Shown: positions 16,441-38,000 of the stretch, one piece after another
Layout: the number at the start of each line of letters is the position of its first letter
How positions within the stretch are numbered: the stretch's first letter is position 1
Assembly (NCBI GenBank): GCA_031763025.1
Contig: JASSKH010000006.1
Span: forward strand, 2,274,958 to 2,338,957
From: Macrocystis pyrifera
Lineage: Eukaryota; Sar; Phaeophyceae; Laminariales; Laminariaceae
Length of the DNA stretch: 64,000 nucleotides
Direction: 5' to 3'
Program-made: the position numbers and the translations under genes
The notes under the pieces: model-generated
What the model was told of the DNA's origin: nothing
Database searches by the model: none
The model's input: the letters and a program-made list of their open reading frames with translations, nothing else

Positions 16441-18537
16441 ATGGAGTTCGTGCAAGGTTCCTTCTTATGACCTTAGGTCCCACCTCCCCTCCCAGCACCG
16501 TCACTATCCCTCTACACATGAAGCTAAGCACGGAGTCGGGAATACCAACATACATATAGCTCCTCATGCAGTCGACGACCTTCGTACCATTCTTCCCCAT
16601 TCTCCTCTTCGCGTCTAATATTCATTTACGTATTGCTATCAAATTGGTGCTGCCGTAGGGGTAATAAAACCTTATGGCACCGTATCACAGCAGTACCTTG
16701 TTGGGGTAGTGGTCGTACCTGCCGTCCTGATCGTCCGCGGAAGAAGTTATAAGACTGAGGGGCTGCTGTCCTTATCGTCCGCGGAATAAGCACTGAGGGG
16801 CTCCACTACAACGCTAGTTACAGGTGCCAACTTCCCCAGGCCAAAGTGCCCGAGATATTTGCTCGGGGTGGCTAATACCTAGTCAACCTGCACCTCCATA
16901 TCACCAATGTGTAAGTGTAGGTACTCCAACAATCATCGTTCTTCCTCATCGGTCTCGGGTCCATCAGCAACAACAGCGTCGAGTATGTTGTGAGAGTGTC
17001 CACCTGCCAGGTCTCCATCTAGTGCGGATCTTCCACCTCTACCACCAACGCTGTGAGTCTTCCGTGCACTGGCGATACTGACTACTAGTGCGATGAATGG
17101 TTACCCTCGGTGGAGTTAGTGACATGCTACCAGTTACGTCGGAGGCGTCCTTCTTGGTCGACCTGCGGATCTAAGTAGTAATTGTATATAGGGCGATCTT
17201 GTTGTTGCACGGCAATAGAACCTGCACTACCTTCCTCACGCCCGAGTTGGTGAAGTTAGACATGTAGGTGGAGCAGTCACTACCATAATAGAAATATTCT
17301 ATAAGGTGTCCCTGCTGATGGTCATCGTCAACTCCCCACTTGCAATCGTGGAGGGGGAACTGTACATCGCTATCTCTGTCACGACCCCTTTATTGCCCTC
17401 CGGAGTGTTCTCGTCGCCGTTCTTGCCGGTATTCGGCCTTCGACTAGGGATCTCTGTCGGTGTCCTTTCTCAGAAAAGACCTGCGCCTTCTTGGTGTCGC
17501 GGAGTACTCTGTCGAAGAGGGCCGGGCTGTGTGTTGGCGAGCCTGCTCTCTCCAGTCTGACATTGACTCGAAAATTAAATTGCGAGGCAATAAGTTTACA
17601 GTTGGACATGAGTTAGACTATTACACTCGTGCCTTTGTCGTTCGTTTGTCACGAGCCTTGTTGAAGTTAGCGCGGGTGTTCCAAGGTTCGCTGAAAGACC
17701 GCCAGCCTCGCTGCTAAACTTTCGTGGCTTCTAGCTTTACAACAATAAATTCGGGACATTGTAACTATACTACAACGACCACTTTAATTCTATTGGGGCA
17801 GATTTGACGTTTTCCTCTAATCGATAGTGCCACGGCTCTGAACTTCGGACTCCTAAAAACAAAAGAAAGCACAGTGGTTTTAATAAAAAAAAAAAAACGC
17901 AGTATTCAACAAACTAAAAACACAAGTATATTTAGCGCGGACGTTTTCTATGTTTTTGTGAGTGGTTCGTGCAGCAAAATATGTCCATGTTTGATTACAC
18001 AGCATAAATAAATCACAAGCCTTATCGAAGGTAGTCTCTGACTCGAGCCCCGTGGTTGACGAAGTTGATTTGCTTAATCTTTGAGCCTCCTGCTTTGTCA
18101 TCAAGACGTTGGATGCGACCATGGGGTCGACTGCTAAATTCAGAGCTTTTTTCACTATTTTAGTAAATAAATCAATTTTTTTTTCTTCGCTCCTTTACCT
18201 CCAGTCTTTTCTCGAAACAAGAATCACGCTTCGACATTTTTCGAACTTTGACCCTTCGTAGGCTTTCAGTTTTACCCACCGTTGCCATCAAAGATTCATT
18301 TTGCGTACGACATCTTTTAGTGTTGTAGGTTAGTCGTTCTTTGTCCTTTTGAGATTAACACGACGCTCTTTAGCCCGAGCTGATGGTTTTTTTCCCGTGG
18401 TATTTTGTTTTTTTTTTTTTCGCCAAACGTGGGTTTGGTTTTCGTGGTCGACCCGATCTTTAGATCGGTATTTCTTTCTGGTTACTCGCTGGCTTTTTTG
18501 GGTTCATCGATCCACTCCACCTTGTCGTCCGAGTCTA
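16441..18537. other. No recognisable gene; left flank of element A
   Basis: Two small cgtccgcggaa/actgaggggct repeats lie at 16,730-16,805. A minus-strand open frame of 91 codons (18,155-17,880) is Thr/Ser/Lys-rich and unrecognised. The last 74 bases (18,464-18,537) are open in the plus frame that continues beyond element A. Confidence 0.35.
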
Positions 18538-18816
18538 TGGTAAGATCAAGGTTGCGGGACACTTTGTATCCCTGGACAGGTCTGCCTTTTAAGTCGGTAA
18601 TCGTTGGTACTCACGTGTGTTGCTTGCTTAGCTATAGAAGAAGAGCAGTTTTATTCCTTTCGTGCACGCGGAGACTGAGACCAAGCTCGTGCGTCTCTGG
18701 AAAACCCCTGGTTTTCCCACCTAAGATATGCCTTCCACGTACTACAAATACGTTCCCAGTGTCTGAACCTAGGTAACTACCGGGCTTTCAACCTCATACA
18801 AAGCAGTATCATAACA
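18538..18816 (-). repeat. 3' LTR of element A
   Basis: On the minus strand it begins TGTTATGATACTGC and ends ATCTTACCA, where the 5' LTR has AACA. It includes an AATAAA poly-A signal (ggaataaaactgc) and an 8-bp-stem hairpin ggaaaacc/ggttttcc. Confidence 0.95.
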
Positions 18817-19376: not shown

Positions 19377-19690
19377 TCAGCTATCCACGGCGGCACCTCG
19401 AGATTCATCTACGTTACGCTGGAACCCCCGTGCAAACGCGCTAGCCAAGTTATTTTGCAGACACCAAGAACCTCGTACAGCTCTCGTCGAAGTCGTGTAG
19501 CGCGCCGGAGAAAGAGGAAGCTTGATTGGTCCCGGGTCGTCCAAACATTGAACCAAATACACTCCATCCGTTGGTGTAGTTGCGCTGATTTTCCCGAGCC
19601 ACAACAGACCGTCGTCGCCCTTGTACCAAAGTGGGCCCCGTTGGGAAGTACAGTGTTTCTGTATCGGCGGAGTCAATCGGCGTGCGATAC
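19377..19690 (-). pseudogene. C-terminal Tudor/chromo-like domain of element A
   Basis: After the chromodomain an in-frame TGA (19,673) and a frame change lead to a block WYKGDDGLLWLGKIS...GVYLVQCLDDPGPIKL, with the aromatic and Gly spacing of a small beta-barrel chromatin reader. A similar tail ends the unrelated pol relic at 7.8 kb. It probably helps target integration; this is inferred from position and shape. Confidence 0.6.
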
Positions 19691-20710
19691 GCAGCCATAG
19701 CCAGGTGCCAGAAGCCGCTCGCCGTTGCTCCGAGAAAGCTCCCGTTGTGCCGCGCCAATTCTCATTCGGCGGTACACGCGGTTGGTTTGGCGGTGTTGGT
19801 TCGGGGTGCCGGCCCAGTAGCGCAAAATCGCGTGGCGAGAAAGCTGAAGGTCCATTTCCCGTTCCCAGGATGGCCAGGATAGTCCTGTCCAGTGCGTCTT
19901 GTACATCACCGCGATGACGCCACCTCGACCTCTAACCGATTGGTGTCCAGGAATCTTTTCCACCTCGAGTCGTTCAAGAGGGGTCGAAACGTCGTCCTCG
20001 GTGACGTGGTACGGAAGGGATTTCTTGGAGAAATTGTAGAGCACGTATTGCGTCAACCCCGCCGGCAAGTACTTCGGCATGTCGCCACGGTCGTGGGGGT
20101 TGGTACAGGGCTTGCAGCGTTGAACAGATACCCGCCGGCGAGCCTCAGCGCCGGCCATATCGGAAGAAAGATCCAAATACAGGAGCTTTGCTCCGAGAGG
20201 AGATCCATCCGGGGTGTCTGCTGAGGAGCAGGGGCCAACTGCGAAAACTTTGTAGGGGCCCGTCCAGTTGAGTGAGAGTTTGGCCTTGAGGACCTTGGCG
20301 TCCGTGTGTGATTTCGCGCCCTGGCGGATGGTGGCCGCCGTATTGTACACCCACACCCAACCACCAACGTCAAATTTGGGGACCGGGTGCAGAGCGTCGG
20401 AGAGGGTGGAGTTGCGGCGATTCACGCGAGCGACCGTGAGGGCGTGGTGTTCTCGAACGATATCGTACGCGCGCTGCTGGCGGTCCGTCGCCAAGTCGCA
20501 GTAGGCGAGGTGGTCGCGGGCCAAGCTCTGGTGGCCGGCGACTCCAGCACGCTCGGAAATCGTGAGAAGGAGGCGTGGGAGCCGATCCATACGTACCTCG
20601 TTGGGAGCCAGACCCGTGGCGGCATTGACGGAATTGTTGTACGCAACTTCGACGTGAGGGAGCTGTTCATCCCAGTTGTTTTGGAGCTCGTTGACGACCA
20701 TTGCCAACAT
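19673..20710 (-). pseudogene. Integrase C-terminal region and chromodomain
   Basis: 345 codons. Residues 10-60 are the helix after the core (HVEVAYNNSVNAATGLAP), a signature of gypsy integrases. Residues about 110-200 are the GPY/F-type module (WTGPYKVFAVGP at 149-160). Residues about 249-292 are a chromodomain with the aromatic cage pattern (YKTHWTGLSWPSWEREMDL). Chromodomains of chromoviruses bind methylated histone tails and steer integration into heterochromatin. The block is in the same frame as the core upstream but separated by a TAG at 20,711. Confidence 0.9.
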
Positions 20711-21250
20711 CTAGGCCATCGTGTGGGTTACACGTTCCACCTCACCGTTGCCGTTTGGGTGGTAGGAGCTGGTGGCAATTTTTCGAACCCCGAGAAGCTG
20801 ATATACGGCGTGCAAAAGCTTGGAGCAAAACTGGAGGCCGTTGTCCGAGAAGATGCTGCGCGAGCACCCCCAAAGAGGGATATACCGGTTGATGAGATTG
20901 TTGGCCGTGCCCTCAGCGGTGAACTCTGCCGCTGTGACGGCGTACATGTCGGCTCGGCGGCTGAAACGATCAGTGAAAAGCAAGATGTAGGTACTACCTC
21001 GAGGCGTCACCGGGAGAGGGCCGAAATAGTCGATGCTGACGGCGCTGCCGGGCCCTTCTGGCAAGGTCAACGTGATGAAGGGCCACCGGACCGTCTGCCG
21101 CGACGTTTTCCGTGCTTGGCACTTTAAGCAGTTACGTAGCCACCACCGGGTGCAGATGCTCATGCCGATCCACCAGTAGAAACGTTCGAGCTTACGCAGG
21201 GTGCGCGCGGTTCCTAGGTGGCAGGAAGCCGTGGAATGGCAAGCCTACAT
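20711..21250 (-). pseudogene. Integrase zinc finger and DDE core
   Basis: The HHCC finger (H-x5-H within CHSTASCHLG, then NCLKC) starts just after a TAG at 21,245. The core has D45 (SIDYFG), D107 (FSDNGLQF) and E143 (GEVER), an exact D-x35-E spacing, so the catalytic triad is intact. The core cuts and joins the element cDNA to host DNA. It ends at the TAG at 20,711 in the conserved helix after the last Glu, where this family usually has a polar residue. Confidence 0.92.
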
Positions 21251-22367
21251 GACCCAGGGGCGCATGGGCAGCAGGACATAATCGCGAATAGGCTCGTCGT
21301 TCAATAAACAGGCCGTATGACCCACCGGGCGTTGCGTATCCGACGCAGGGGTGGGGGGACGGCTGTCGGACAAGTAGAACGATGCCCGCGTCGGTGGTTT
21401 GCAAGCGGTCTTTGTTGGCCAGCTCCTGAACCTCCGAAAAGGAAGGCGCTGGTGGGAAGGAAAACCCGATAAAAAGTCGTCTGGCAAAACTCCCGGTCGG
21501 CCAAGGGCTATGTAGCGCATGGCGGCGTTGCACGCGGGCTCAGTCTGTTGTTTCCGAGCCCAGTCGGCGTGCAAATAGCGCGCTGCGGAATCACCGAACT
21601 GAAACTCGGCAGCTGCGCCGAGGGCGTCCAAGTCGGTCAAGGTGACAGGAGGTGCGTCAGTTGGCGGCGGAAGTCGTAAAAGAGGAGTTCCCACGGGCTC
21701 GGCGCGGTCGCGGCCGGACGGGATGGGTACCGTCGGGACGGACGAGGCGGCAGGAGTCGGGGCCAACACGACGGGTGCGGGCGGTCGCGGCCGTGGGCTC
21801 GCGGCGGGGTGATAGCACGCCGGGCTGATAGTCTAGGGGCCCCGCCGGGCCCGAAGCCATAATCAACAGCAGGCGGCATGGTGCCAGCGGCGGCGGCTGT
21901 TCGTCGGCGCGTCCGAGTTGAGATGCGGCCTGAAGACTGCAAAACCTTCGGAGGCGCCGGTTGCCAGGAGGCGATGGGGCAGACGCGGCCGGATCAGTGA
22001 TCACATCGGAATCTTTTCCCTGTGAAGTGCTCGTCGGGGGAGGAGCGCGCTGGGCGACAATCGTCGCTGCAGCGGGGGCTTCTGGAGAGCCCTGGCCAGA
22101 GAGGGAAGACGCGGCCGGAGCAGTGCTCACGACGGAATCTTTGACCTGTGAAGTGCTCGTCGGGGGAGGAGCGCGCTGGGCGACAATCGTCGCTGCAGCG
22201 GGGGCTTCTGCAGAGCCCTGGCCTGACAGGGAAGACGCAGCCGGAGCAGTGCTCACGACGGAATCTTCGACCCCTAGAGTGCTCGTCGGGAGAGGAGCGC
22301 GCGGGTCGACAATCATCGCGGCAGCGGGGGCTTCTGCAGAGCCCCGGTCGCCCCCGGAGGGAATCAC
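21245..22367 (-). pseudogene. Pol linker between RNase H and integrase, with three 126-bp repeats
   Basis: At 21,990-22,360 a 126-bp unit (42 codons) occurs three times, with gtgctcgtcggg at 22,027, 22,153 and 22,279. In one frame it encodes Ala/Ser/Pro-rich units (EAPAAA, RAPPPTST, DSVVSTAPAASS). From 21,769 to 21,245 the main pol frame resumes with a more ordered block (LTDLDALGAAAEFQFGDSA...). The frame changes twice and has a TGA (22,364) and a TAG (21,833). Such a long spacer here is unusual for gypsy pol. Confidence 0.7.
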
Positions 22368-23966
22368 AAAAACCGAAGCGAAAGCGGCGTTGACGGGGGG
22401 TGAAAAAGCCCCAAGCCAGGACGGCGGTCGACGGTGGCGACGGAAGCAGATACACGAGCGACGAATCTCCCCGAAGGAGCAGAGAGGTCGTCAATTCTCA
22501 TACGTGGTCTGAGTGTCCCAAAATCGCGAAAATCCGAAGAGGCGAAAGGTAGCCCACTCAAGACGGCACTTTCACGGCGGGACACCAGCCCATCCAAACC
22601 GACACCAGGGGTCGGCGAAGAGAAAGTGCGAAGCCCGCAGGCTCGGATGAGGAAGATACCACCGTCCTCGACGGGGTTGAGGCAGCTAGACCCACTGCGG
22701 TCGTGTTCTGTGGCGGGCTCCTGCAAGCGGGAGAGAAAGTCAGCATTTCCGTTGGCGCTGCTCTTGCGGTACTCGAAGGTGTAGTCGAACGCGGTGGGGA
22801 ACTCGAGCCACCGCTGGACTCGCGCGTTGTGGTCCCCTACTTTGCTGATACTCTCAAGTGCTTTGTGGTCCGAAATTATTCGAATCTTCGTGCCCCACAG
22901 GTAACCTCGGAGTCGTTTGATGGCCCAGACAATGCTGCCAGCTTCCAGGTCCAACGGTGTCCTGTGCCTCTCGGAATCGAGGGTAGCGCGGCTGATATAA
23001 GAAATGGGCCGTATCGAGCCGTCCGGTTGTTCTTGTTCGAGCACGGCACCAAACCCGTGGATGCAGGCGTCGCAGTACACGTGGAAGGGGCGGGAGCCGT
23101 TGGCTACGGCATCCCAGTCAGGGAAGACCAAAATCGGTGGGACAGCGAGGATCTGGCGGACGATAGCTTCCATAGTCGGCGTGAAGACGTACTTGACCCC
23201 CTTCCGGAGAAGGGCGGTGAGAGGACGTATCCGTTTAGACAGGTCGGGCAGGAATTTGCGATAATATCCTACGCCGCCCATCAGGGCGCGGACCTGCTTG
23301 AGGTTTTTGGGCATGAGCATTTTCATCAAAGCCGAAACCTTTTCGGCACTAGGGCTTATGCCCGCGGGCGAAATTGAGTGGCCCAGAAAATCGGCGTCCG
23401 TGGCGCCGCGGCGAGCCTTCGAGGGAGAGAGCTTGAGGTTGTGTTTGCGCAGGCGTTCGAAGAGGGCTCGTATCGTCCTGACGTGGGCCGCCGGGTCAGA
23501 GTCGAAAACGATCACATCATCAAGGTAGGCCGCCACTTGTGCCAGGCCTTTAATGACTTCGTTAATCACTTTGACGAACCAGCCCGGCGAAGCACTGCTG
23601 CTTTGGGGCATGACGAGCCACTCGTAAAGGCCCGTGGGAGTGCAGAACGCCGTAAGAGGGACGGTGTCCTTGTGCGCGGTAATCTGGTGGAACGAGGAGA
23701 CCAAGTCGAAGAGGGAAAACACCCGTCCCTTCTCCAGGGAGTCGAGGACTTGGTCCACACGAGGTATAGGCAGCTGGCTGAGGTTGTTGATCTTGTTGAT
23801 TTTTTTGTAGTTCACGGTGGTCCGAACGCTTCCAGACTTCTTCGGGATGACCACCAGTGAGCTCGAGTACAGGGAAGTCGAGTGCTGGATCAGACCTGCC
23901 GCTAGGTACTGATCCAAGGTGGCCTCCACTTCCTTGGCCAGGATAGAGTTGATGCGGTGCGGTGCG
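22364..23966 (-). pseudogene. Reverse transcriptase and RNase H of element A
   Basis: 521 codons from 23,929. The RT carries FSLFDLVSSF (catalytic Asp 75), the LPIPRVDQVLDSL lead-in, the MPQ block and YLDD at 135-138. The thumb/connection follows (DFLGHSISPAG, VRALMGGVGYYRKFLPDL). RNase H has D287 (YCDACIHGFGAVL), E329 (LDLEAGSIVW) and D354 (SDHKAL), then NADFLSRL. All catalytic acids are present. The N-terminal fingers join the upstream block through a frame break at 23,954-23,967, where the word gcggt is tandemly duplicated. The last part runs into low complexity and a TGA at 22,364. Confidence 0.95.
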
Positions 23967-24260
23967 GCCTGGACGTGAGAGGAGCGCTTCCTTCCGGGAC
24001 CGAGATCACGAAAGGCATCAACGAGCAGGAACCAAAATCCGACTTGGACTTCGAGAAAACGTCAGGAAATTCGCAGAGAACGTCCCCCAGCTGTTCTATG
24101 ACCCCAGGGGTCCAAGCCTGTGCCGTGGAGGTCAAAATCCACCTCCCGCAGATGTGACGGCAAGCGTGCCTAGACGCGCAGGAACGAAGCGCGCTGTTCT
24201 GAGGTCAAACGCTCAAGCAGTGCAGGCGAGGGCGAGAATGGAGCTGCGAGGGGGGGGGCG
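23902..24260 (-). pseudogene. Protease-RT connector
   Basis: Contains VLCEFPDVFSKSKSDFG and a following FVISVPEGSAP block, the usual lead into gypsy RT. Upstream, a run of nine C (minus strand, about 24,251-24,259) coincides with a frame change. A TAG lies at 24,170. Confidence 0.8.
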
Positions 24261-24875: not shown

Positions 24876-25367
24876 CTACAGAGGGGCCGATTCGCCCAAC
24901 CCCCCCCAAGAACGAGGGGCGCCTTTCTGCTCGCACGCGAGGGATGCCGCACCAACCGAGTGCATGCGATCCAAAACATCTCGTCGGATGAAAGTCTGCG
25001 GGGAGCCAGTGTCAAGAAGCGCCACGCAACCAAAAGGTGCAAGAACGCCAGCTCCGCTGTGAATCGCGACTTTGGTTGTAAAAGAGGCGTCATCGAGGGT
25101 AATGGTGCCCCCGACGAGGCAAGGGCCGTGTTCTGGCAGCGCGAGGGAGGGGTCGACACTAGGTGCGACAGCCAAAATCTCGGGGCTGTGATCAGCCGGC
25201 GCGTCAGAAAAATAGGTCGAAAACTCCAAAGGAGGACCTGGGCAAGCGCGGGCCACGGCCAAAGGGCGGGACGGCGCTGGTGAAATCTCATGAATTCTGT
25301 CAGTCCAGGTTGGAGTGAAGAATTGATGAGAGGAGGCGGGGTGTGCCAACCCGGCCTCACTTGAGCT
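24876..25367 (-). pseudogene. Retropepsin-like aspartic protease
   Basis: The active-site motif is LLDTGSPQTFIRRDVL, with DTGS at 25,013-25,002, preceded by a typical two-strand hairpin (VGGTITLDDASFTTKVAI). The family cleaves the Gag-Pol polyprotein. It follows the NADAR domain without a break, after a Pro/Ser-rich spacer of about 80 residues. A TAG at 24,876 cuts the fold before its second half. Confidence 0.88.
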
Positions 25368-25823
25368 GAGGGTGTCGCGAACGGCGGAAAGAGCTTTACC
25401 GAGCAAATTTTTCCCACGCCACCGAGAGGGGTCGTGAGCTTCGGGGTCGTCTGCCCGGAGACCGGTGCCCCACACGGCATCAAAAGGGCTGGCTTCAGCC
25501 AAAATTTTGATGCCAGTGCTCAATAGGTGCTGCTTCATGACCGGGTTCTGCGTCGATTTGGTAAAATTACCAGCAAGGACGGCGTCTTCCCGGACACGGT
25601 CCCAGATAGCGCAGTCGAAGTTATGCACGCCTCGACCGAGGCGTTTGTGCTCGCGTGGGTCTGGCGGGGCCTTAATCCGCTCCGCTGTGCCGTGGTCCTG
25701 GAAAAGGCGAGCCTTTTCAGCCATCATCTACTGCTCCGCGCAGGAATATGACACATCGCCGATGACAAAAGACGAGGGGGACCACTGCGAAAAATAAGAG
25801 GGGGGCTGCCAGAACAGTACCAC
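25368..25823 (-). pseudogene. NADAR (YbiA/DUF1768) domain in the polyprotein
   Basis: About 152 residues matching the NADAR pattern end to end: VVLFWQPPSYFSQWSPSSF, a CAEQ-(stop)-MMAEKA helix, KRLGRGVHNFD, IWDRVREDAVLAGN, KSTQNP, HLLSTGIKILAEASPFDAVW, GTGL, WRGKNLLGKALSAVRDTL. Length and motif order fit the family. NADAR proteins are N-glycosidases acting on ADP-ribose-linked or related substrates; bacterial forms reverse guanine ADP-ribosylation of DNA by DarT1-type toxins, and YbiA acts on riboflavin intermediates. The domain sits in frame with the downstream protease and lies downstream of Gag. A TAG at 25,728 falls where the family usually has an aromatic residue between EQ and MM. I am sure of the fold family; the role in the element is inference. 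Confidence 0.88.
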
Positions 25824-26881: not shown

Positions 26882-27527
26882 TCAGTTGCGAGCGCGGAAG
26901 GTGCCGGGCTGGCGTCCATTCGGGTTTCCGCCCGAGGCATGCGAAGCACCGCAGCAAACCCCGGAGACGGGAGTCGGGACGGAAGAGGTAGGGGTGGTCG
27001 AACCACCACCGTGATGACCGGAGTGAGACTGCTGGTTTCCTCGTGCCTCGTGTGTGTTGTAACCGTCACCTTGTCTGTTTTGCTGACCCTGGCCGTGATG
27101 TTGCCCACGCGAGTGGCCGGGACGACGCCTGTGTTTCTTCTGGTTTTGTTTCTTCGGTCGTGAATTGTTCTCGCGGCGGTGTCTGCTCACGCGTTCTTGC
27201 CAACGACGGAACGCCTCGCCGTCCTCGCCGAGCGTTCCGAGGTCGGGGTTTAAGATACCACTAAGGTTTAGAAAGGGATGTCTACACTGTCGAAGAGAGT
27301 GTGTGTCTTCGTGGCAGTTTAAAACAGTGCCCTCGGTTTTCGCTGAGGGCGGCTGCGCGAGCGGACGATAAAAGTAGACTGTTCCAGAGGGGAGGGTCCT
27401 CGGTCTGGATGAACATGCAAACGGCGTGAACTTCAGCATAGTGGTGTTCTTCAAGGGGCCAGCAGTTGGAAGAGGTGTCAAGCCACGGGTCGAGGCAGTC
27501 AGGGATGGATTTGTTGACATTCATCAC
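26882..27527 (-). pseudogene. Gag nucleocapsid: broken zinc knuckle and basic tail
   Basis: One frame (27,527-27,282) ends ...SENRGHCFKL and the other (27,520-26,882) holds NCHEDTHSLRQC. Together they give the four ligands of a CX2CX4HX4C knuckle, but the frames differ by one base at ttttaaac (27,316-27,325). Downstream the protein is Arg/Lys/His/Gln-rich, suited to RNA binding. The knuckle packages element RNA. A 1-nt indel is the simple reading. Confidence 0.8.
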
Positions 27528-28219
27528 AAGCGGATTATTGCGCGATCCCGTCTGCCAAGAAGGCGACTGGGGAAGCGTCCGACCCTGCCCGAGACCAATA
27601 TTGGCGGGCCGGGCCCCGACGGGGCGGATGACCGCGCACCCGTCGAAGAAGCAGGCAAAGAAAAATATTTTTCGCCGTTGACGGCAGGTGTCTTATTATT
27701 CGCGAGAGTATCGAAAGCCAACCACATGGCGTCCAAAGTGCCGAACGGCCTCGATACCGTAGCCAAAACTCCCGGGTACAGCGTGGGCATCAAGCTGGGG
27801 TACTGCTCGTTCACTGCCATCCGAACTACATCCAAAACAACCTCTACCCCCGGTGCCAAAACACGCTCAGTCCGCGTCGCTGCCGACACCACCCCTCGCA
27901 ATGCACGACTAAAATCGCAAAAGGGGGTCCCGTTAGACACACCAAAATTATGCAACTTGGTGTAGCTGGCCCCCGTGTTGGTGAGGTCGAAGTGGTTGCT
28001 CAGCAACCTCAGGAGGAGCGTGGACGCCTCCGGTCCCGTTGATCCTGCTGCGAGGGCGCGCGACACCTGTCCAAAAATATCATCCATCAAGGTAGTGAGA
28101 GGGGCGGTCGTGGGCTTGTCAGGCGTGATGGCGCGCGCGAAGGATTTCTTAAGAGGGTACTCCCAACCGGGGATCCAATTAGTAGAACTAAGGTCTTCAT
28201 GGCTGCCATCGTTGCACAT
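27524..28219 (-). pseudogene. Gag capsid-like region
   Basis: 231 codons, mostly alpha-helical in appearance (LMDDIFGQVSRALAAG, LLLRLLSNHFDLTNTG, VLDVVRMAVNEQYPSLMP). Directly upstream of the zinc knuckle, which is where capsid lies in gypsy Gag. The sequence itself gives no family-specific motif. Confidence 0.6.
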
Positions 28220-31200
28220 TTATGATAATATCAGAGGCGGATGCCTTTACCGAACGAGTGAGTTGTTGCGCGGCATCGCAAGGATCGATCGAGGAGGGAA
28301 AGGGTAGGACAGAAATGCGCGAAATGTCCTTCAGTCCCGGGTGTTTGTACGCACGCTGAACGTCGGCGGTGTGCTTTTTCGCGGCGGTAGCGGCGGCGGA
28401 GTCGATCGACGAAGTTCGCTCGTGGGCAAGGTTAGATGACGCGGGCATGGCGCGGTCATCAAGCATGGCCAAACGGCCAAGACGCGCGGCGGAAGAAGCA
28501 ACCAGTCAGCGAGGAAACCACTTGCCTCTTGCTGGTTGCGTGCGTGAACTCTGGGACGGGGGCTCTTGTGTTGCCGTCCGAGGAAGAACTGGGAGAACTA
28601 GCTCGAGAAGAGTTTCCCCGTGGGCCGTATCGACCGTCATCGATCGCTCCTTCCCCTTTCCCCGGCTTCTCCATCGTCCAGACCCGTTGCGCCGAGACGT
28701 ACTGCCACCATTGTCCGCGCCCGAGCCCCGGCGGAACCTGCCGTGCGGACCGGCCGAATCCCCTCCAACCCTCGGGCGCTGACGGGCCTGGTCGCCAGCG
28801 CGGCAGCGAGAGCGGTCTCGGGCCACAGAGCTGTCGTCAACTCCCCGGTGTCCGCTGGAAGAGGCGGGGTGGTGTCCAGCATCCGGCCCCGAGTAGGGGA
28901 GGTGCGGTTCCTGGTGGCCGGCGCATGACCGCCGCTTGCAGTGGAGAAGGCACGCGGCAGGTTTCGGCCCAGAGACGGTGGCGGGAGAAGCGTCGTGCGC
29001 CTTCCGGAGGCTGACCACCAGAGCCATAGTGTACGCACGGCGTTGTTGAGGCGCGCAGAAATCGTCCGCCATCTCGAGCCAAGCGTCGTGGACGGAGAGG
29101 TCTTCTGCCGGCATCTCGCGTCGGAGGCGACGAGCGGCAGAGACCATCCGGGCCGCCGCCTCGGGGGGGAAGCACGGGTTTGGCTCGGCCGCCATGCAGG
29201 CAACACTCCCGTGCAAGACGTCCAGATCCCCGGTACGCTTGGTCCGGGCGTCTATCGCGATCGCGGCGGGGGAACACGAGTCCGTGGGGCCAAGGCCGGG
29301 GGCATCGTTGTGGTCGCGGCAAGAGGAAGGCTCTCCGCTGGGGCCTTTGTCTCGGGAGCCCGACTGTTCTGGAAGGAAGCGGTCGCCCGGGCAGCCCGCA
29401 GCGCTTCACTGGCTCGAGATATGGAGTCTCCCGCACAAGAGGCGAAGCGTGCGGCTTCCTCGGAGGCCGTGGTGGCAGCCATGGCGACTGCGGCGGCAAC
29501 CGTGGAGGCGCGGGCGGCAGCTGCAGCCGCGAGCTCGGCCGACACGCGCGTTTGCGCCCGACGACTAGCCGTTGTCGCCGAGGCAGCCCCAAAGGTCTCG
29601 GCGGTAGCCAAAGCCTGCTCGGCCGCGATGACGTCGGGGTGGTTACCAGCGATAGCAGGAGTCCGCGCGGCCGCGGCAGTGTCGACCTGGTCGGGCGCGG
29701 GGCGTTCGGCTGTTGTCCACGCGTCAAAGCTCGAAAGGGTAGCCCAATGCTGGATCACAGCCGCCAGCTCCTGCGGCGAGAGGGAGGTTCACGCTCCAGG
29801 TACTTGGGGGGGGGGGTGGGCTGGGCACTGTCCGGGTCCTCGGCCGCCGGTCCTGCGTCCTTCGCGGTAGCCAGCCGCTCGTCCTCTGAATCAGGGGGCT
29901 CGAAGTCCACGGCGTCGTCCAGAGTGGTGGGGCCCGCGGGCTCGGATGTCCTCGCTCCCGACGAGGGAGAGGAGCCGTAAGTCCTCAGGCCGCTGGGAGA
30001 CCTGGCTGGGCTGGGTGACTCCTCCCGTGCTTTTGTCATCCGTGACATGCTGAGGCGGGGGCGGGCGGAAAACACCGGGGCAAAGGGCGACACCGGGGCA
30101 GGGGGGGGGACGGGAAACGGCGGTTCTCAGGGTCGTGGAGCGTAGAAACAGCGGTGGCAGGAGCCGCGGCTTGTGCTTCAGCAACTTGTAGAGCTGTGAT
30201 CAAGGCACGGCGCACCATTCTGCGGGCGCTACGAGCACTTGGGGGGCGAGCCTCGACTCTAGATGGTGTCGCGATAGGGAGTGCGCTGTCGCGGTTTATA
30301 CGTGTACTAACAGTAAGTGTAGTTGGTGTTAGTACGTCCCCGGTACTGGAGGGCCTATCATAAGCATCGTCCCCTCTAGCAGCAGTATTAAAACTCGGAT
30401 CGGAACGAGAATGCTCAACCGAATCGTCGCGGGTAACTACAGCAGCGGGCACGCCGGTACTGGAGGGCCTATCAAAAGCATCGTCCTCTCTAGCAGCAGT
30501 ATTAAAACTCGCATCAGGACGAGAACTCGCAAGTAGAATAGTCACGGGTAGCTACAGCAGCGGGTACTGCGGTACTGGGGGGCCTATCAAAAGCATCGTC
30601 CCCTCTAACACCAGTATTAAAACTCGCAGCAGTAGTGGAATTTCCAGCGGAATCGGCGTGGGCGGTTACAGCAGCGGGCGAAAAGGGCGCAATACTGAAA
30701 TTCAGTGTGCCGTCTTGTGGGCGAGGGGCGGGAAAAATTTCACCAGCGGCCGTAGCGCTCCCTCTAGCAGCAGCATGAAAACTCGAAGCAGTACTGTAAT
30801 TTCCAGGATATCTGTTTGTAGATATTAATAGAGCAGCGGGGGAAGCAGACTCAACAACGAAATCCAGTTTGCCATCGTGTGGCCGCGGCACGGAAAATAC
30901 CTCACGAGTGGCAGCATCACTCGTGGCCATCCTACGAGTACGAGCAGGGTCGGGCATCAGTGGAATGCGAGGCGGAAAAACAGTCTCAAATACTCTCTCA
31001 TCTGGCCCAGAAGCAGGTAGACCCGGTGGCGAAGAGCGCAGCTGGGTTGCCTGGAGATCGCTGCGTCCAGGTTTGTCCGACGTGCTCCGGCCCGGAGCAG
31101 ACGCAGCTGGCTCCACGGGCTGGGTGGGTACGCGCTCAGCGGAGCGGGGTCTTCCAGGTGGCTTGGACAGCAGGGGGCACGAGTGGGGAGACAATGCTGC

Positions 31201-31580: not shown

Positions 31581-31859
31581 TGTTAAGATCAAGGTTGCGG
31601 GACGCTTGATATCCCTGGACAGGTCTGCCTTTTAAGTCGGTAGTCGTTGGTACTCACGTGTGTTGTTTGCTTAGCTACAGAAGAAGAGCAGTTTTATTCC
31701 TTTCGTGTACGTGGAGACTGAGACCAAGCTCGTGCGTCTCTGGAAAACCCCTGGTTTTCCCACCTAAGATACGCCTTCGAAGTACTACAAAAACTTTCCC
31801 AGTGTCTGAACCCAGGTAATTGCCGGGCTTTCAATCTCATACAAAGCAGTATCATAACA
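31581..31859 (-). repeat. 5' LTR of element A
   Basis: Starts TGTTATG and ends CTTAACA on the minus strand, the canonical TG...CA. Transcription of the element would start here. No clear TATA box was assigned. Confidence 0.95.
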
Positions 31860-31863
31860 TCTA

Positions 31864-34414: not shown

Positions 34415-35781
34415 CACACACAAGCAAGCCAGAGGACAGACGCTACACAGAAAAGAGGGTACACGTGCTGCTGCTAGTGGACGGCCGTTCGTCTCACGGT
34501 GATCTAGTGGATGATCGGGGGCAAGTTACTATTGCGGGGGTCCATAGTTAACGGGACCAATTTTGTTAGTAAAAATAGGAAAATATATAGTTTTTTGTGT
34601 ATACCATAGGTCCTGTTAACTATGGCCCCCCGTAATATCAAGTTCTACCCTCCGCTCTGCACCTCCGTACACCAGCCCATGGATATGGGGATCATCGCCA
34701 AGACGAAGGTGAACTACAGGACGGAGCTGCTCGATGTGAAGACATGAACCATGTTGGTGGCTGACACACTTCGCGCCCAGGCCAAAGCCCGCAAGATGAA
34801 GGCCGGGACAATGGGGCTGGCGCAAGGGCACCAACCTCACGTGCGGGACGCCGCTGGACTTCTCCAGAAAGCATGGGCCAGCGTCACCGCCCAGGACATC
34901 GCCAGGTGAGGTTTGAACATGTGCTATTGCGTTTAAAATGTTCAGCTCGCGCAAGTGCACATGGCGTTGGTGGTGCGTTACGTGGGTAAGGTTGCACGGA
35001 TAGGGTTTCTTTTTTTTTTTCGACTAAGTATTCTAGCATTCGGACATCCCCGTTGTTGCTTTGCTACAAAAGAGTCCTCGCTCGCATCCCTATGAGTCAT
35101 TGTTTGTCACTGGGTTCGTCTAACATCGCTTGTTCACCCAAAAACGGATGCATCGCATTTTCTGCGCTACCTGGGACCAGGTGCTTTGTCAAAGCCGAGA
35201 CGCTTCCGGAGGACATGAAGGCTGAGCTCACCAAGCATCACGGAAAGATCCGGTTCCACGTCGCCGAGCCTGACTTGAAGGCTCTCACGGAGACTGTCAC
35301 TACGTTGAGCACGAGCGTGCGCGACGCGCAGCAGCAGGGATCCCGCATCGTAGACGACGAGATCAGCGAACTGTTGGCAGAACTCGACATCGAACCCGGA
35401 AAGCCGGTCGCGGAGGAAGCGGTGAGCGCGATTCAGGGGTGGGCTACCATCGAGGACGACAATGAGGTGGTAGAGGCTCTTCGACTAGACGCAATGGACG
35501 AAATGGCGGCACTGTTGGCTGGAACGCACGTGTCTACCGGCGGCGAGGAGAAGGACGAAGAGGAGGAGGGCGGTGGCAATGAGAACACGGGGCGCGAGCG
35601 CCGTGCTCCACCGGCTTGTGATGAGCTGTCGTCTCACTTCGGCGTCCTGGAAGCGGCAGCAGAGGAGAGTGGCAACGGAGACGCGGCGTTCTACCTAACG
35701 AAAGCGAAGATGGCGATGATCGCAACGCATTCCGCTAAGCGGGTGCGCCAGGCGGACATTAGAAAGTTTGTCGCGACGTAG
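34415..35781 (+). pseudogene. Pogo-type transposase, C-terminal half, one intron, MITE-disrupted
   Basis: Before the MITE the frame reads VLLLVDGRSSHGDLV, after it KFYPPLCTSVHQPMDMGII, the DDE block around the last catalytic Asp of pogo/Tigger/CENP-B-type transposases (D in QPMDMG). Then a helical block, KAWASVTAQDIAR, splices with CFVKAETLP. The intron is 34,906-35,180 (AG/GTGAGG to ACCAG/GTGC) and keeps phase. The second exon (35,181-35,781) ends in acidic, low-complexity sequence and a basic end. There is a TGA near 34,746 in exon one. The helix-turn-helix DNA-binding half is missing, deleted before 34,410. Confidence 0.85.
34532..34635. mobile_element. TA-MITE copy 1, inside the transposase
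   Basis: 104 bp, starts ttgcgggggtccatagtta and ends in its complement ccccccgtaa, with TA on each side. Leaving out the element and one TA, the transposase frame is continuous across the site. Confidence 0.95.
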
Positions 35782-36026: not shown

Positions 36027-36488
36027 CAATAAATATGAATAGTGCCGGTGTCCGGTATAGTGCCGGTAAACTCTCAGGACACACCCCCGCACTATATAGC
36101 TCCCAGTACTGTATTTCCTTATTTTTACAACCAATTTGTGGTCTTATTAACCATGGCCCCCAAGTAAAAGTTACCGGTATTTATTTTCTTAATAGGCTCT
36201 GGAAAGTAGAAGTAATTTAAACAAAAAAAAAGTCCCAGTGAGGACACGCACATTCTCTCTGGCCCCAGGCCACACGCTGCACATTCTTAAAAACGTAGCT
36301 GCTATACACAACGTGTGCGGAAATCGCCTATTAATAGTACATATCAATTTGAATCATAGTGCGTGACACGCGCTGACGTCACCCAAAAAATCCATATGCG
36401 TGAGAGTGCTAAAATAAAAAAAGAAAATTAATTGTCTCTCCAACAACTTGATCTACACAGCAAGCAGTGCTTCGAACAGTGCTTGCTA

Positions 36489-36592
36489 TTACGGGGGTCC
36501 ATAGTTAATGGGACCAAATTTTGTTTGTAAAAATAGGTAAATGTATAGGTTTTATGTATACCATAGGTCCTATTAACTATGGACCCCCGTAC
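36489..36592. mobile_element. TA-MITE copy 2
   Basis: Inverted ends ttacgggggtccatagttaa and complement, TA duplication, internal taaaaataggtaaa shared with the other copies. Confidence 0.95.
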
Positions 36593-38000
36593 TAACAACC
36601 TCAACATACTTGTATGTCATGTTTCCGTCGAGGTCAAGGAGCTTATGAAACATACAAATGCGTGATTTTCGTAAACGTTGATTGGTACACTGCTGCTGTC
36701 ATTACAAAACGCCGGTCATTGTAAAAAGCGGTACGTGTACTACGTCCGTTTTTGATGTCGGCAAGGGCACTCTACTATGCTGAATTCCTTCTCACACAGA
36801 CAGGTGGTTGTTCAATGACCCCTATGCGAGCGAAACAAAATTAACCTTCAGTGAATTGGTAGGCATCTACTTGAATTTCAGCTTCCAAGTACGTGTTGCG
36901 TCGTGTTTGCCAAGACAGGAACCTTCATACTCGTACAAGGTGACTATGTTTTTTGACCTGTTCATTTGGTTCATGTAGCGTTGTTTCATCGCATTACGTT
37001 CAGCAATCAAACGCCGAGGAATATACAAGCGTACATCACACGTCAAGCGTTGTCCTGTCGTGCACTATTACGGGGGTCCATAGTTAACAGGACCTATGGT
37101 ATACATAAAAACCTATATATTTAACTTTTTTTACTAACCATATCTGGTCCTGTTTACTATGGACCCCCGTAATAGTATATTATACAGTAGCGCTGACAAC
37201 GAAGATTTTCAACCGACGCGCCTTAAATGTCAACCACCAGCCTCCAAAGTCCACCGTTCTGTCAAAAATCACCTGCGTCAAACATTAAAATAGAAGACCG
37301 CCTTTGAAACATCAGGTGGTCGCTTATATCTCGCCTTGTCTTAACGAGTGTAACTCGACACTGCTGTTTCAGCTGACTTTCAACACCTATTATACTACGT
37401 GACAGTTGACTGTTGACCTGTAATCTTCCTTAGTTTAATATGTGGAAAAGTCTTTCCCACAACACTTAAAATCCTCTTACTTCGTGCGGCCCATAAACCC
37501 TATCTTCATCTTGCTCGGAGTCTATCTACTCATGCCTTAGGCTCAGACATTGATGCTTTCATCTAAGCATAACTTGCGTTGAGTCCTGTTTTTTTTTTTT
37601 TTTACGAGAAACTTACCTGTCTGTGTAGGGCCAAAAAAACAACTGACAGGTAACATATCCAAAGCTGATAATCACGTCCTGTCCAGCTCAACAATTCGAG
37701 CGAAAGACGTATATCCCTATCTCATATTATTGTTACAACCTGATACAAACCAGTAGCCCTACCTTCTATTCAATGCCCCCCAAGCCCAATCTCAAAGAAC
37801 CTTAAAATGCTCAGCATACATTACCTCATGTCACCTGGATATTCTTAGGGATATATATCGTAGTCGCAAAAATGTCATTTGCACGTGACATATCTAAAGC
37901 GAGACACGTTTTATCTGAGTATAGGAAAAACTTAATTACCTGCCCGACCTAGCATTCTTCAACGCCGACTATATCTTAGAGGAGCACTCTTCCGGCTGTG
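36593..38000. other. AT-rich DNA without a recognised gene
   Basis: Apart from MITE copy 3 I see only poly-T, short palindromes and no substantial open frame. Confidence 0.4.
37068..37172. mobile_element. TA-MITE copy 3
   Basis: 105 bp, both inverted ends intact, TA on each side; opposite internal orientation to copy 2. Confidence 0.95.

What the first reader, a model, noticed from the sequence alone, without database searches (positions are those of the whole stretch)
25368..25823. NADAR ADP-ribose-handling domain embedded in a Ty3/gypsy polyprotein
Seen: a full-length NADAR match read in the same frame as the aspartic protease downstream, inside an element with LTRs, RT and integrase. Known: NADAR enzymes are N-glycosidases; some strip ADP-ribose from guanine in DNA and act as antidotes to DarT1-type toxins, others act on riboflavin intermediates. 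Inference: the element may use it to undo ADP-ribosylation of its cDNA or RNA, or to process NAD metabolites during replication. Retroelement genes rarely carry such an enzyme. I do not know whether this fusion has been described.
Basis: partly seen in the sequence, partly recalled or inferred. Interest (0 to 1): 0.88.

Follow-up and report, generated by a model that had tools for sequence, protein, structure and literature searches.

The report
NADAR enzyme inside kelp retrotransposons
A giant-kelp jumping gene really does carry an ADP-ribose-handling (NADAR) enzyme domain at the front of its replication polyprotein; the copy in this window is dead, but many relatives exist, the domain looks kept by selection, and the same kind of fusion was reported from the brown alga Ectocarpus in 2025.

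Summary
Observation largely right. The window holds a decayed Ty3/Gypsy element on the minus strand (LTRs 31581-31859 and 18538-18816, 93.5% identical, TSD TCTA) with a NADAR domain (Pfam 131 bits) just upstream of, and in frame with, the aspartic protease. Corrections: this copy's NADAR is cut by an in-frame TAG (25728-25730), and RT lies in another frame. The genome matches the Macrocystis pyrifera assembly. The tool scored 150 of 1264 NADAR candidates there; all 150 match. A natural copy has NADAR-protease-RT-RNase H in one 1696-aa frame. Eight ADP-ribose-pocket residues are kept in 27 of 27 copies examined, a ninth in 26. In the window's subfamily NADAR has omega 0.47 (shared variants 0.33), like the protease (0.47/0.34), below linkers (0.71-0.89); these copies were picked by NADAR score. 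One kelp copy groups with an Ectocarpus NADAR-RT-integrase protein (100/97). Not new in kind: Genome Biology 2025 (PMC12477816) describes NADAR in an Ectocarpus Gypsy lineage. Added here: kelp, further subfamilies, a selection test, and a subfamily that lost RT (215 junction matches), where constraint on NADAR is weaker. Substrate and role remain inferred: most likely removal of ADP-ribose from guanine in the element's nucleic acid.

The parts
31581..31859 (-). 5' LTR of the element (TGTTA...TAACA ends, written on the + strand)
18538..18816 (-). 3' LTR, 93.5% identical to the 5' LTR
18534..18537 (.). target-site duplication TCTA, low side
31860..31863 (.). target-site duplication TCTA, high side
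27524..28219 (-). Gag-like open frame (by position and by matches in other copies; no Pfam match)
26882..27520 (-). second Gag-region open frame, matched in other copies; no Pfam match
25731..25814 (-). first 28 residues of NADAR
25728..25730 (-). in-frame TAG that breaks NADAR in this copy
25368..25727 (-). NADAR domain, Pfam profile positions 44-162 of 163
24879..25127 (-). aspartic protease region with ALLDTGSPQTF, same frame as NADAR (motif and position; weak Pfam match)
23372..23848 (-). reverse transcriptase (PF00078)
   Evidence: residues 72-230 of ORF 22364-24061
22799..23095 (-). RNase H (PF17917)
   Evidence: residues 323-421 of ORF 22364-24061
20711..21244 (-). integrase: H2C2 zinc finger and core
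   Evidence: rve 29.4 bits, under its 32.6 cut-off
19673..20710 (-). integrase C-terminal region; no Pfam match here, a weak chromodomain match in the same region of copy L040

Best explanation
Shown: the window carries a dead member of a high-copy Ty3/Gypsy retrotransposon family of giant kelp whose Pol begins with a YbiA-type NADAR domain, in the order NADAR - aspartic protease - RT - RNase H - integrase. The NADAR keeps the ADP-ribose pocket and, in the copies examined, shows purifying selection similar to that on the protease. Inferred: the domain is made as part of Pol, travels with the replication particle, and works as an N-glycosidase that removes ADP-ribose from guanine bases of the element's RNA or cDNA (or clears a related adduct) that a host ADP-ribosyltransferase puts there; without this, reverse transcription or integration would be hindered. 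The domain was probably taken from a bacterial-type YbiA gene, directly or by way of a brown-algal stand-alone NADAR gene, before the Ectocarpus and giant-kelp lineages split (unless elements later moved between them).
For: Domain and order. LTR/TSD. Copy number: (150 scored of 1264 candidates, all 150 match). Pocket residues against the P. nicotianae NADAR structure 8bau: E43, K75, R79, W89, R93, E125, D130, W133 kept in 27 of 27 copies, K50 in 26 of 27 (residue roles from passages of PMC11543638). All 9 are among the 61 of 150 columns invariant between kelp A, kelp B and Ectocarpus (p 2e-4 if placed at random). Selection in 20 copies of subfamily A: omega NADAR 0.47 (shared variants 0.33), protease 0.47 (0.34), RT 0.37 (0.22), linkers 0.71-0.89 (0.62-1.95). 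Between A and B, three pairs: dN 0.44-0.46 with dS saturated. Kelp copy L040 with Ectocarpus P0001 100/97. YbiA-type NADARs hydrolyse ADP-ribosyl-guanine in vitro, and a myxobacterial YbiA is an antitoxin (PMC11125620, passages).
Against: No substrate test. E. coli YbiA was active in vitro but did not protect cells from DarT1 (PMC11125620), and no DarT was found here, so the guanine-ADPr role has no identified opponent. The A copies used for omega were taken from a list ranked by NADAR score, which lowers NADAR's omega; the NADAR-blind, junction-picked RT-less copies gave omega 0.58 (shared variants 0.90), with an intact NADAR in 13 of 38. D86 of the pocket is not kept and Y84 is F.
Confidence: 0.45

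Rival explanations
1. The NADAR acts on small molecules (soluble ADP-ribose derivatives, cyclic ADP-ribose signals, NAD-cap products) and blunts a host alarm signal, not on the element's nucleic acid.
For: Proposed for phage NADARs in PMC9503650 (passages); the same pocket could serve both kinds of substrate (inference).
Against: The domain sits inside Pol, which is expected to stay with the particle (inference); the same paper favours macromolecular targets for NADARs in polyproteins of eukaryotic RNA viruses.
Confidence: 0.25
2. The domain is a binding module (RNA or protein) for assembly or targeting, with catalysis not needed.
For: Nematode SNA-3 uses NADAR domains in an RNA-protein setting, function unknown (PMC9303266, passages); extra domains of retroelement proteins are often structural (recalled).
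Against: Eight pocket residues are kept in 27 of 27 copies, K50 in 26 of 27; in SNA-3 changing the corresponding residues impairs function.
Confidence: 0.15
3. The domain is a passenger: captured once and amplified by bursts, with no role; long frames only reflect young copies.
For: RT-less copies carry it with weak constraint (omega 0.58, shared variants 0.90; 12 of 38 have no NADAR match at the expected place); the A sample is biased towards good NADARs.
Against: A-B divergence with dN 0.44-0.46 against saturated dS; present in kelp A, B, C and in Ectocarpus; linkers in the same copies are less constrained.
Confidence: 0.1
4. NADAR was acquired more than once: subfamily B took a different bacterial-type gene from A, C and the Ectocarpus element.
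For: Kelp B pairs with environmental proteins P0054/P0092 at 96/87, apart from kelp A, C and Ectocarpus.
Against: One clade of the retroelement rows is not rejected (AU p 0.172; 0.148). Identities fall in the same order: NADAR A-Ectocarpus 57%, A-B 52%, B-Ectocarpus 46%; integrase A-Ectocarpus 76%, A-B 65%, B-Ectocarpus 61%, the last over a longer stretch of 457 aa.
Confidence: 0.2

Closest known systems
Ectocarpus NADAR-bearing Gypsy lineage (Gypsy-12_Ec32 and related families), Genome Biol 2025, PMC12477816
   Same: YbiA-family NADAR at the N-terminal part of Pol of a Ty3/Gypsy element in a brown alga; C-terminal chromodomain in Gypsy-12_Ec32 and a weak match in kelp copy L040
   Different: Kelp, another order of brown algae (recalled); three subfamilies seen here, one without RT; pocket and selection counts. 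I did not have the Gypsy-12_Ec32 sequence, only Ectocarpus protein P0001 of like architecture
P. nicotianae NADAR (PDB 8bau) and E. coli YbiA (PDB 2b3w)
   Same: YbiA-type NADAR; matches at E 5.3e-17 and 1.4e-5; nine pocket residues of 8bau kept, K50 in 26 of 27 copies
   Different: Free-standing enzymes; here a domain of Pol
DarT1-associated NADAR antitoxins (BC4488 type)
   Same: Same superfamily; glycosidase of ADP-ribosyl-guanine (PMC11543638, passages)
   Different: The kelp domain has the YbiA-type glutamate, and no DarT candidate was found in the genome
Tx1 LINE ORF1 of Crassostrea gigas with NADAR (PMC12477816) and NADAR in polyproteins of RNA viruses (PMC9503650)
   Same: NADAR built into a protein of an RNA-replicating element
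   Different: Other carriers; known from passages of the papers only, not compared by sequence here

Membership tests
Ty3/Gypsy LTR retrotransposon | paired LTRs with target-site duplication | tested here: met
   279-bp LTRs, 93.5% identical, TSD TCTA
Ty3/Gypsy LTR retrotransposon | Pol order protease-RT-RNase H-integrase | tested here: met
   the protease by its DTGS motif and position, Pfam only 11.2 bits in the window and 14.2 in a B copy, cut-off 21.2
Ty3/Gypsy LTR retrotransposon | tRNA primer-binding site after the 5' LTR | tested here: inconclusive
   one search shows TGGCGTCGACGGC two bases inside the LTR; no tRNA was matched to it
Ty3/Gypsy LTR retrotransposon | RT tree placement | not tested
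   only pairwise identities made
NADAR (PF08719) | profile match over the curated cut-off | tested here: met
   131 bits against 35.1 in the window; 163.5 bits in L029
YbiA-type NADAR | glutamate at the position of P. nicotianae E125, plus E43 and K50 | tested here: met
   E125 and E43 in 27 of 27, K50 in 26 of 27
YbiA-type NADAR | fold | not tested
   Structure prediction was busy at each of nine calls (71, 76, 81, 90, 99, 103, 111, 117, 122)
YbiA-type NADAR | ADP-ribosyl-guanine hydrolysis | not testable with these tools
   needs an enzyme assay
Ectocarpus NADAR-Gypsy lineage | NADAR at the N-terminal part of Pol | tested here: met
Ectocarpus NADAR-Gypsy lineage | common descent with an Ectocarpus NADAR-RT-integrase protein | tested here: met
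   kelp copy L040 with P0001, P0002 and P0009 100/97; for the window's subfamily A the joint clade has 95/76, below the starred level; A is 68% identical to P0001 over RT-RNase H (575 aa) and 76% over integrase (177 aa)
Ectocarpus NADAR-Gypsy lineage | C-terminal chromodomain | tested here: inconclusive
   14.7 bits in L040, cut-off 25.1; no match in the window's ORF 19673-20710
DarT1-NADAR toxin-antitoxin | a DarT partner | tested here: not met
   PF14487: 0 candidates in the whole genome; the control rang in 1 of 14 genomes

The most novel reading that the evidence does not exclude
NADAR is a working, selected replication enzyme of a whole Gypsy lineage of brown algae that undoes a host ADP-ribosylation of the element's nucleic acid: a sign of an ADP-ribose-based arms race between a eukaryote and its retrotransposons, with an RT-less subfamily that spread while still carrying NADAR, protease and integrase.
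Probability: 0.2. Interest if true: 0.8.

Novelty: new member of a known kind. Interest (0 to 1): 0.42.

Why it matters
The role of NADAR outside toxin-antitoxin pairs is an open question (PMC11125620, passages). A retrotransposon lineage that has kept the enzyme's pocket through long evolution, with constraint like that on its protease, suggests that ADP-ribose removal is useful during retrotransposition in brown algae, and gives many intact natural copies of the domain to assay.

Tried and rejected
Rejected: 'one-off insertion' (150 of 1264 candidates scored, all 150 match; protease downstream in 24 of 24 distinct copies). Rejected: 'the TAG is a shared read-through stop' (only the window has it there among the 26 distinct copies). 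Qualified: the Ectocarpus paper's 'almost exclusively bacterial hits': Ectocarpus, Pylaiella and Scytosiphon also hold a stand-alone NADAR protein, but the trees leave open whether it was the donor (retro + stand-alone as one clade not rejected, AU p 0.187; not shown either). No such gene was recognised in this genome (150 of 1403 candidates scored, best identity 59%; I read two of the alignments, both of the retroelement type, and judged the rest by identity alone; introns or the cap could hide one).

Led nowhere: neighbours of bacterial relatives. I looked by eye, with crude ORF picks that were sometimes in the wrong frame, at 12 of 79 loci: no recognisable ADP-ribosyltransferase and no partner shared between them except one frame alike in two Nannocystis loci; no profile scan was made. 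Viral contigs gave 4 relatives of 47-53% identity, further than the best bacterial ones. Structure prediction was busy each time. A protease-anchored, NADAR-blind sample of subfamily A could not be drawn because the genome search stayed busy. A search for PARP did not complete.

Limits of the counts: the A copies come from the top of a list ranked by NADAR score; omega is by Nei-Gojobori on pairs that share history, so pairs are not independent; counts of shared variants are small (NADAR 12 non-synonymous to 11 synonymous; B 19 to 6). Four duplicate loci (L001, L003, L005, L007) were dropped before the counts.

Full report
What is in the window. The element lies on the minus strand. Its LTRs are 31581-31859 (5') and 18538-18816 (3'), 279 bp and 93.5% identical, with ends TGTTA...TAACA (one base changed in the 3' copy), flanked by the 4-bp target-site duplication TCTA. 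In element sense the order is Gag-like frames, a linker, NADAR, aspartic protease, RT, RNase H, a linker with tandem repeats, integrase, integrase C-terminal region. NADAR is PF08719 at E 6.5e-38 (131 bits, cut-off 35.1) over profile positions 44-162. The first 28 residues lie just upstream, separated by an in-frame TAG at 25728-25730. The protease, known by its DTGS motif and position (Pfam only 11.2 bits), is in frame with NADAR; RT and integrase are in another frame.

Which genome. G000 has 537,376,219 bases in 223 contigs; contig C189 has 26.5 Mb and C196 is 13,669,674 bases long. The giant-kelp assembly paper gives 537 Mb, 223 contigs, largest 26 Mb, N50 13,669,674 (PMC10498591, abstract and table passages). 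I take the window to be Macrocystis pyrifera.

How common. The Pfam search of the whole genome scored 150 of 1264 candidates; all 150 are over the cut-off, and by my count of the table 126 of 150 have no stop inside. Twenty-eight loci were then on hand around top-ranked hits, 24 of them distinct copies: a protease match lies downstream in 24 of 24; an RT match follows in 18 of 18 copies of the window's subfamily (A), in a few of them further away, and in 0 of 6 copies of a second subfamily (B). Natural copy L029 has NADAR (residues 233-382), protease, RT (886-1043) and RNase H in one 1696-aa frame. Copy L040, the one copy seen of a third subfamily (C), has NADAR, protease, RT, integrase and a weak chromodomain match (14.7 bits, cut-off 25.1) in one open frame of at least 2298 aa; its RNase H was not recognised by Pfam.

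Pocket residues. Against the P. nicotianae NADAR structure (8bau, E 5.3e-17) and the residue roles in PMC11543638 (passages), E43, K75, R79, W89, R93, E125, D130 and W133 are kept in 27 of 27 copies and K50 in 26 of 27; Y84 is F in 27 of 27; D86 is not kept (the window is one of the 27; four duplicates were dropped first). All nine kept positions are among the 61 of 150 columns that are invariant between kelp A, kelp B and Ectocarpus (p 2e-4 if placed at random). The glutamate in the last strand marks the YbiA type (PMC11125620, passages).

Selection. In 20 A copies (the window included) omega was: NADAR 0.47, protease 0.47, RT 0.37, RNase H 0.45 (14 copies), linkers 0.84, 0.71 and 0.89 (20, 20 and 13 copies). 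For variants shared by two or more copies it was 0.33, 0.34, 0.22, 0.08 and 0.62, 0.81, 1.95; for variants seen once 0.63, 0.85, 0.54, 0.90 and 0.95, 0.82, 0.78. So NADAR behaves like the protease and not like a linker. Bias: these copies were ranked by NADAR score (L029 by its long frame). A sample blind to NADAR could be drawn only for subfamily B, anchored on its RT-deletion junction: 26 of 38 have a NADAR match at the expected place, 22 full length, 13 with an intact frame; omega 0.58, shared variants 0.90, variants seen once 0.47. This speaks against strong need for NADAR in the RT-less copies. Between A and B, in three pairs, dN is 0.44-0.46 and dS is saturated, which points to long-term constraint.

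The RT-less subfamily. In 6 of 6 B copies fetched, RT and most of RNase H are gone at the same junction. A 34-nt pattern across the junction has 215 matches in the genome with up to 3 mismatches, and 0 for the pattern read backwards. B is therefore a derivative that spread after losing RT and must use RT from elsewhere (inference).

Relatives and origin. A search with the NADAR part of L029 among polyprotein-length proteins found one (of 633 candidates): Ectocarpus sp. CCAP 1310/34, 1398 aa, with NADAR, RT and integrase (P0001; no DTG or DSG motif in that model). With the domain alone, 7980 of 8000 scored candidates match; among the 120 listed, named ones are Ectocarpus, Nannocystis (61-62%), Pylaiella, Scytosiphon, Chrysoparadoxa, Planctomycetota and Myxococcota. 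Five listed proteins (Ectocarpus sp., E. fasciculatus, Pylaiella, Scytosiphon and one eukprot entry whose organism I do not know) form a stand-alone type (100/99), four of them with a Cys-rich N-terminus. In the tree kelp C joins Ectocarpus P0001, P0002 and environmental P0009 (100/97), kelp A joins these at 95/76, and kelp B goes with environmental P0054 and P0092 (96/87); one clade of all retroelement rows is not rejected (AU p 0.148). NADAR and integrase identities fall in the same order, A-Ectocarpus, then A-B, then B-Ectocarpus (the last integrase value is over a longer stretch), as expected if NADAR was in the common ancestor; two acquisitions are not excluded. Barring transfer between algae, the C-Ectocarpus clade means that the fusion is older than the split of those lineages.

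What is known. PMC12477816 (Genome Biol, September 2025; [quoted passage not shown] Searches for 'NADAR' with 'retrotransposon' (20 of 104 papers listed), 'NADAR domain' (15 of 15), 'YbiA' with 'retrotransposon' (1 of 1) and NADAR / LTR retrotransposon / brown alga (10 of 149) listed no other paper that, by title and start of abstract, reports such a fusion, and none for kelp; most listed papers were not opened. Hence: new member of a known kind.

How it most likely works. Shown: position in Pol, kept pocket, constraint in the copies examined. From the literature: YbiA-type NADARs hydrolyse ADP-ribosyl-guanine in vitro (PMC11125620), and NADARs of eukaryotic RNA viruses are thought to act on ADP-ribosylated macromolecules (PMC9503650, passages). 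Inferred: the retroelement domain removes ADP-ribose from guanines of its RNA or cDNA. The opposing enzyme is unknown; no DarT was found, and a search for PARP did not complete.

Noticed in passing
G000-wide; L017, L023, L024, L026, L027, L028: A NADAR-protease-integrase subfamily (B) that lost RT and most of RNase H at one shared junction; 215 junction matches genome-wide.
   Followed up: partly
P0004, P0006, P0032, P0043 (and P0014, without the Cys-rich part): Stand-alone NADAR proteins of Ectocarpus, Pylaiella and Scytosiphon with a Cys-rich N-terminus; none of that type recognised in the kelp genome.
   Followed up: partly
G000 contig C200 (22.0 Mb): By my count 26 of the 150 scored NADAR hits lie on this contig against 6.1 expected by length. 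By size it may be scaffold 2, which the assembly paper describes as poorer in genes, next to a passage on the sex-determining region.
   Followed up: no
window 21977-22347 and 30340-30679: Tandem repeats (126-bp and 114-bp steps) inside the element, one in the linker before integrase and one near the 5' end.
   Followed up: no
window 34526-34641, 36483-36598, 37064-37177: Three copies of a roughly 112-bp repeat, 88-89% identical, one inverted and itself partly palindromic; perhaps a small non-autonomous element.
   Followed up: no
G000:C220:11674539-11675078: NADAR match in an open frame of 2016 aa, 49% identical to P0032; possibly a further intact subfamily.
   Followed up: no
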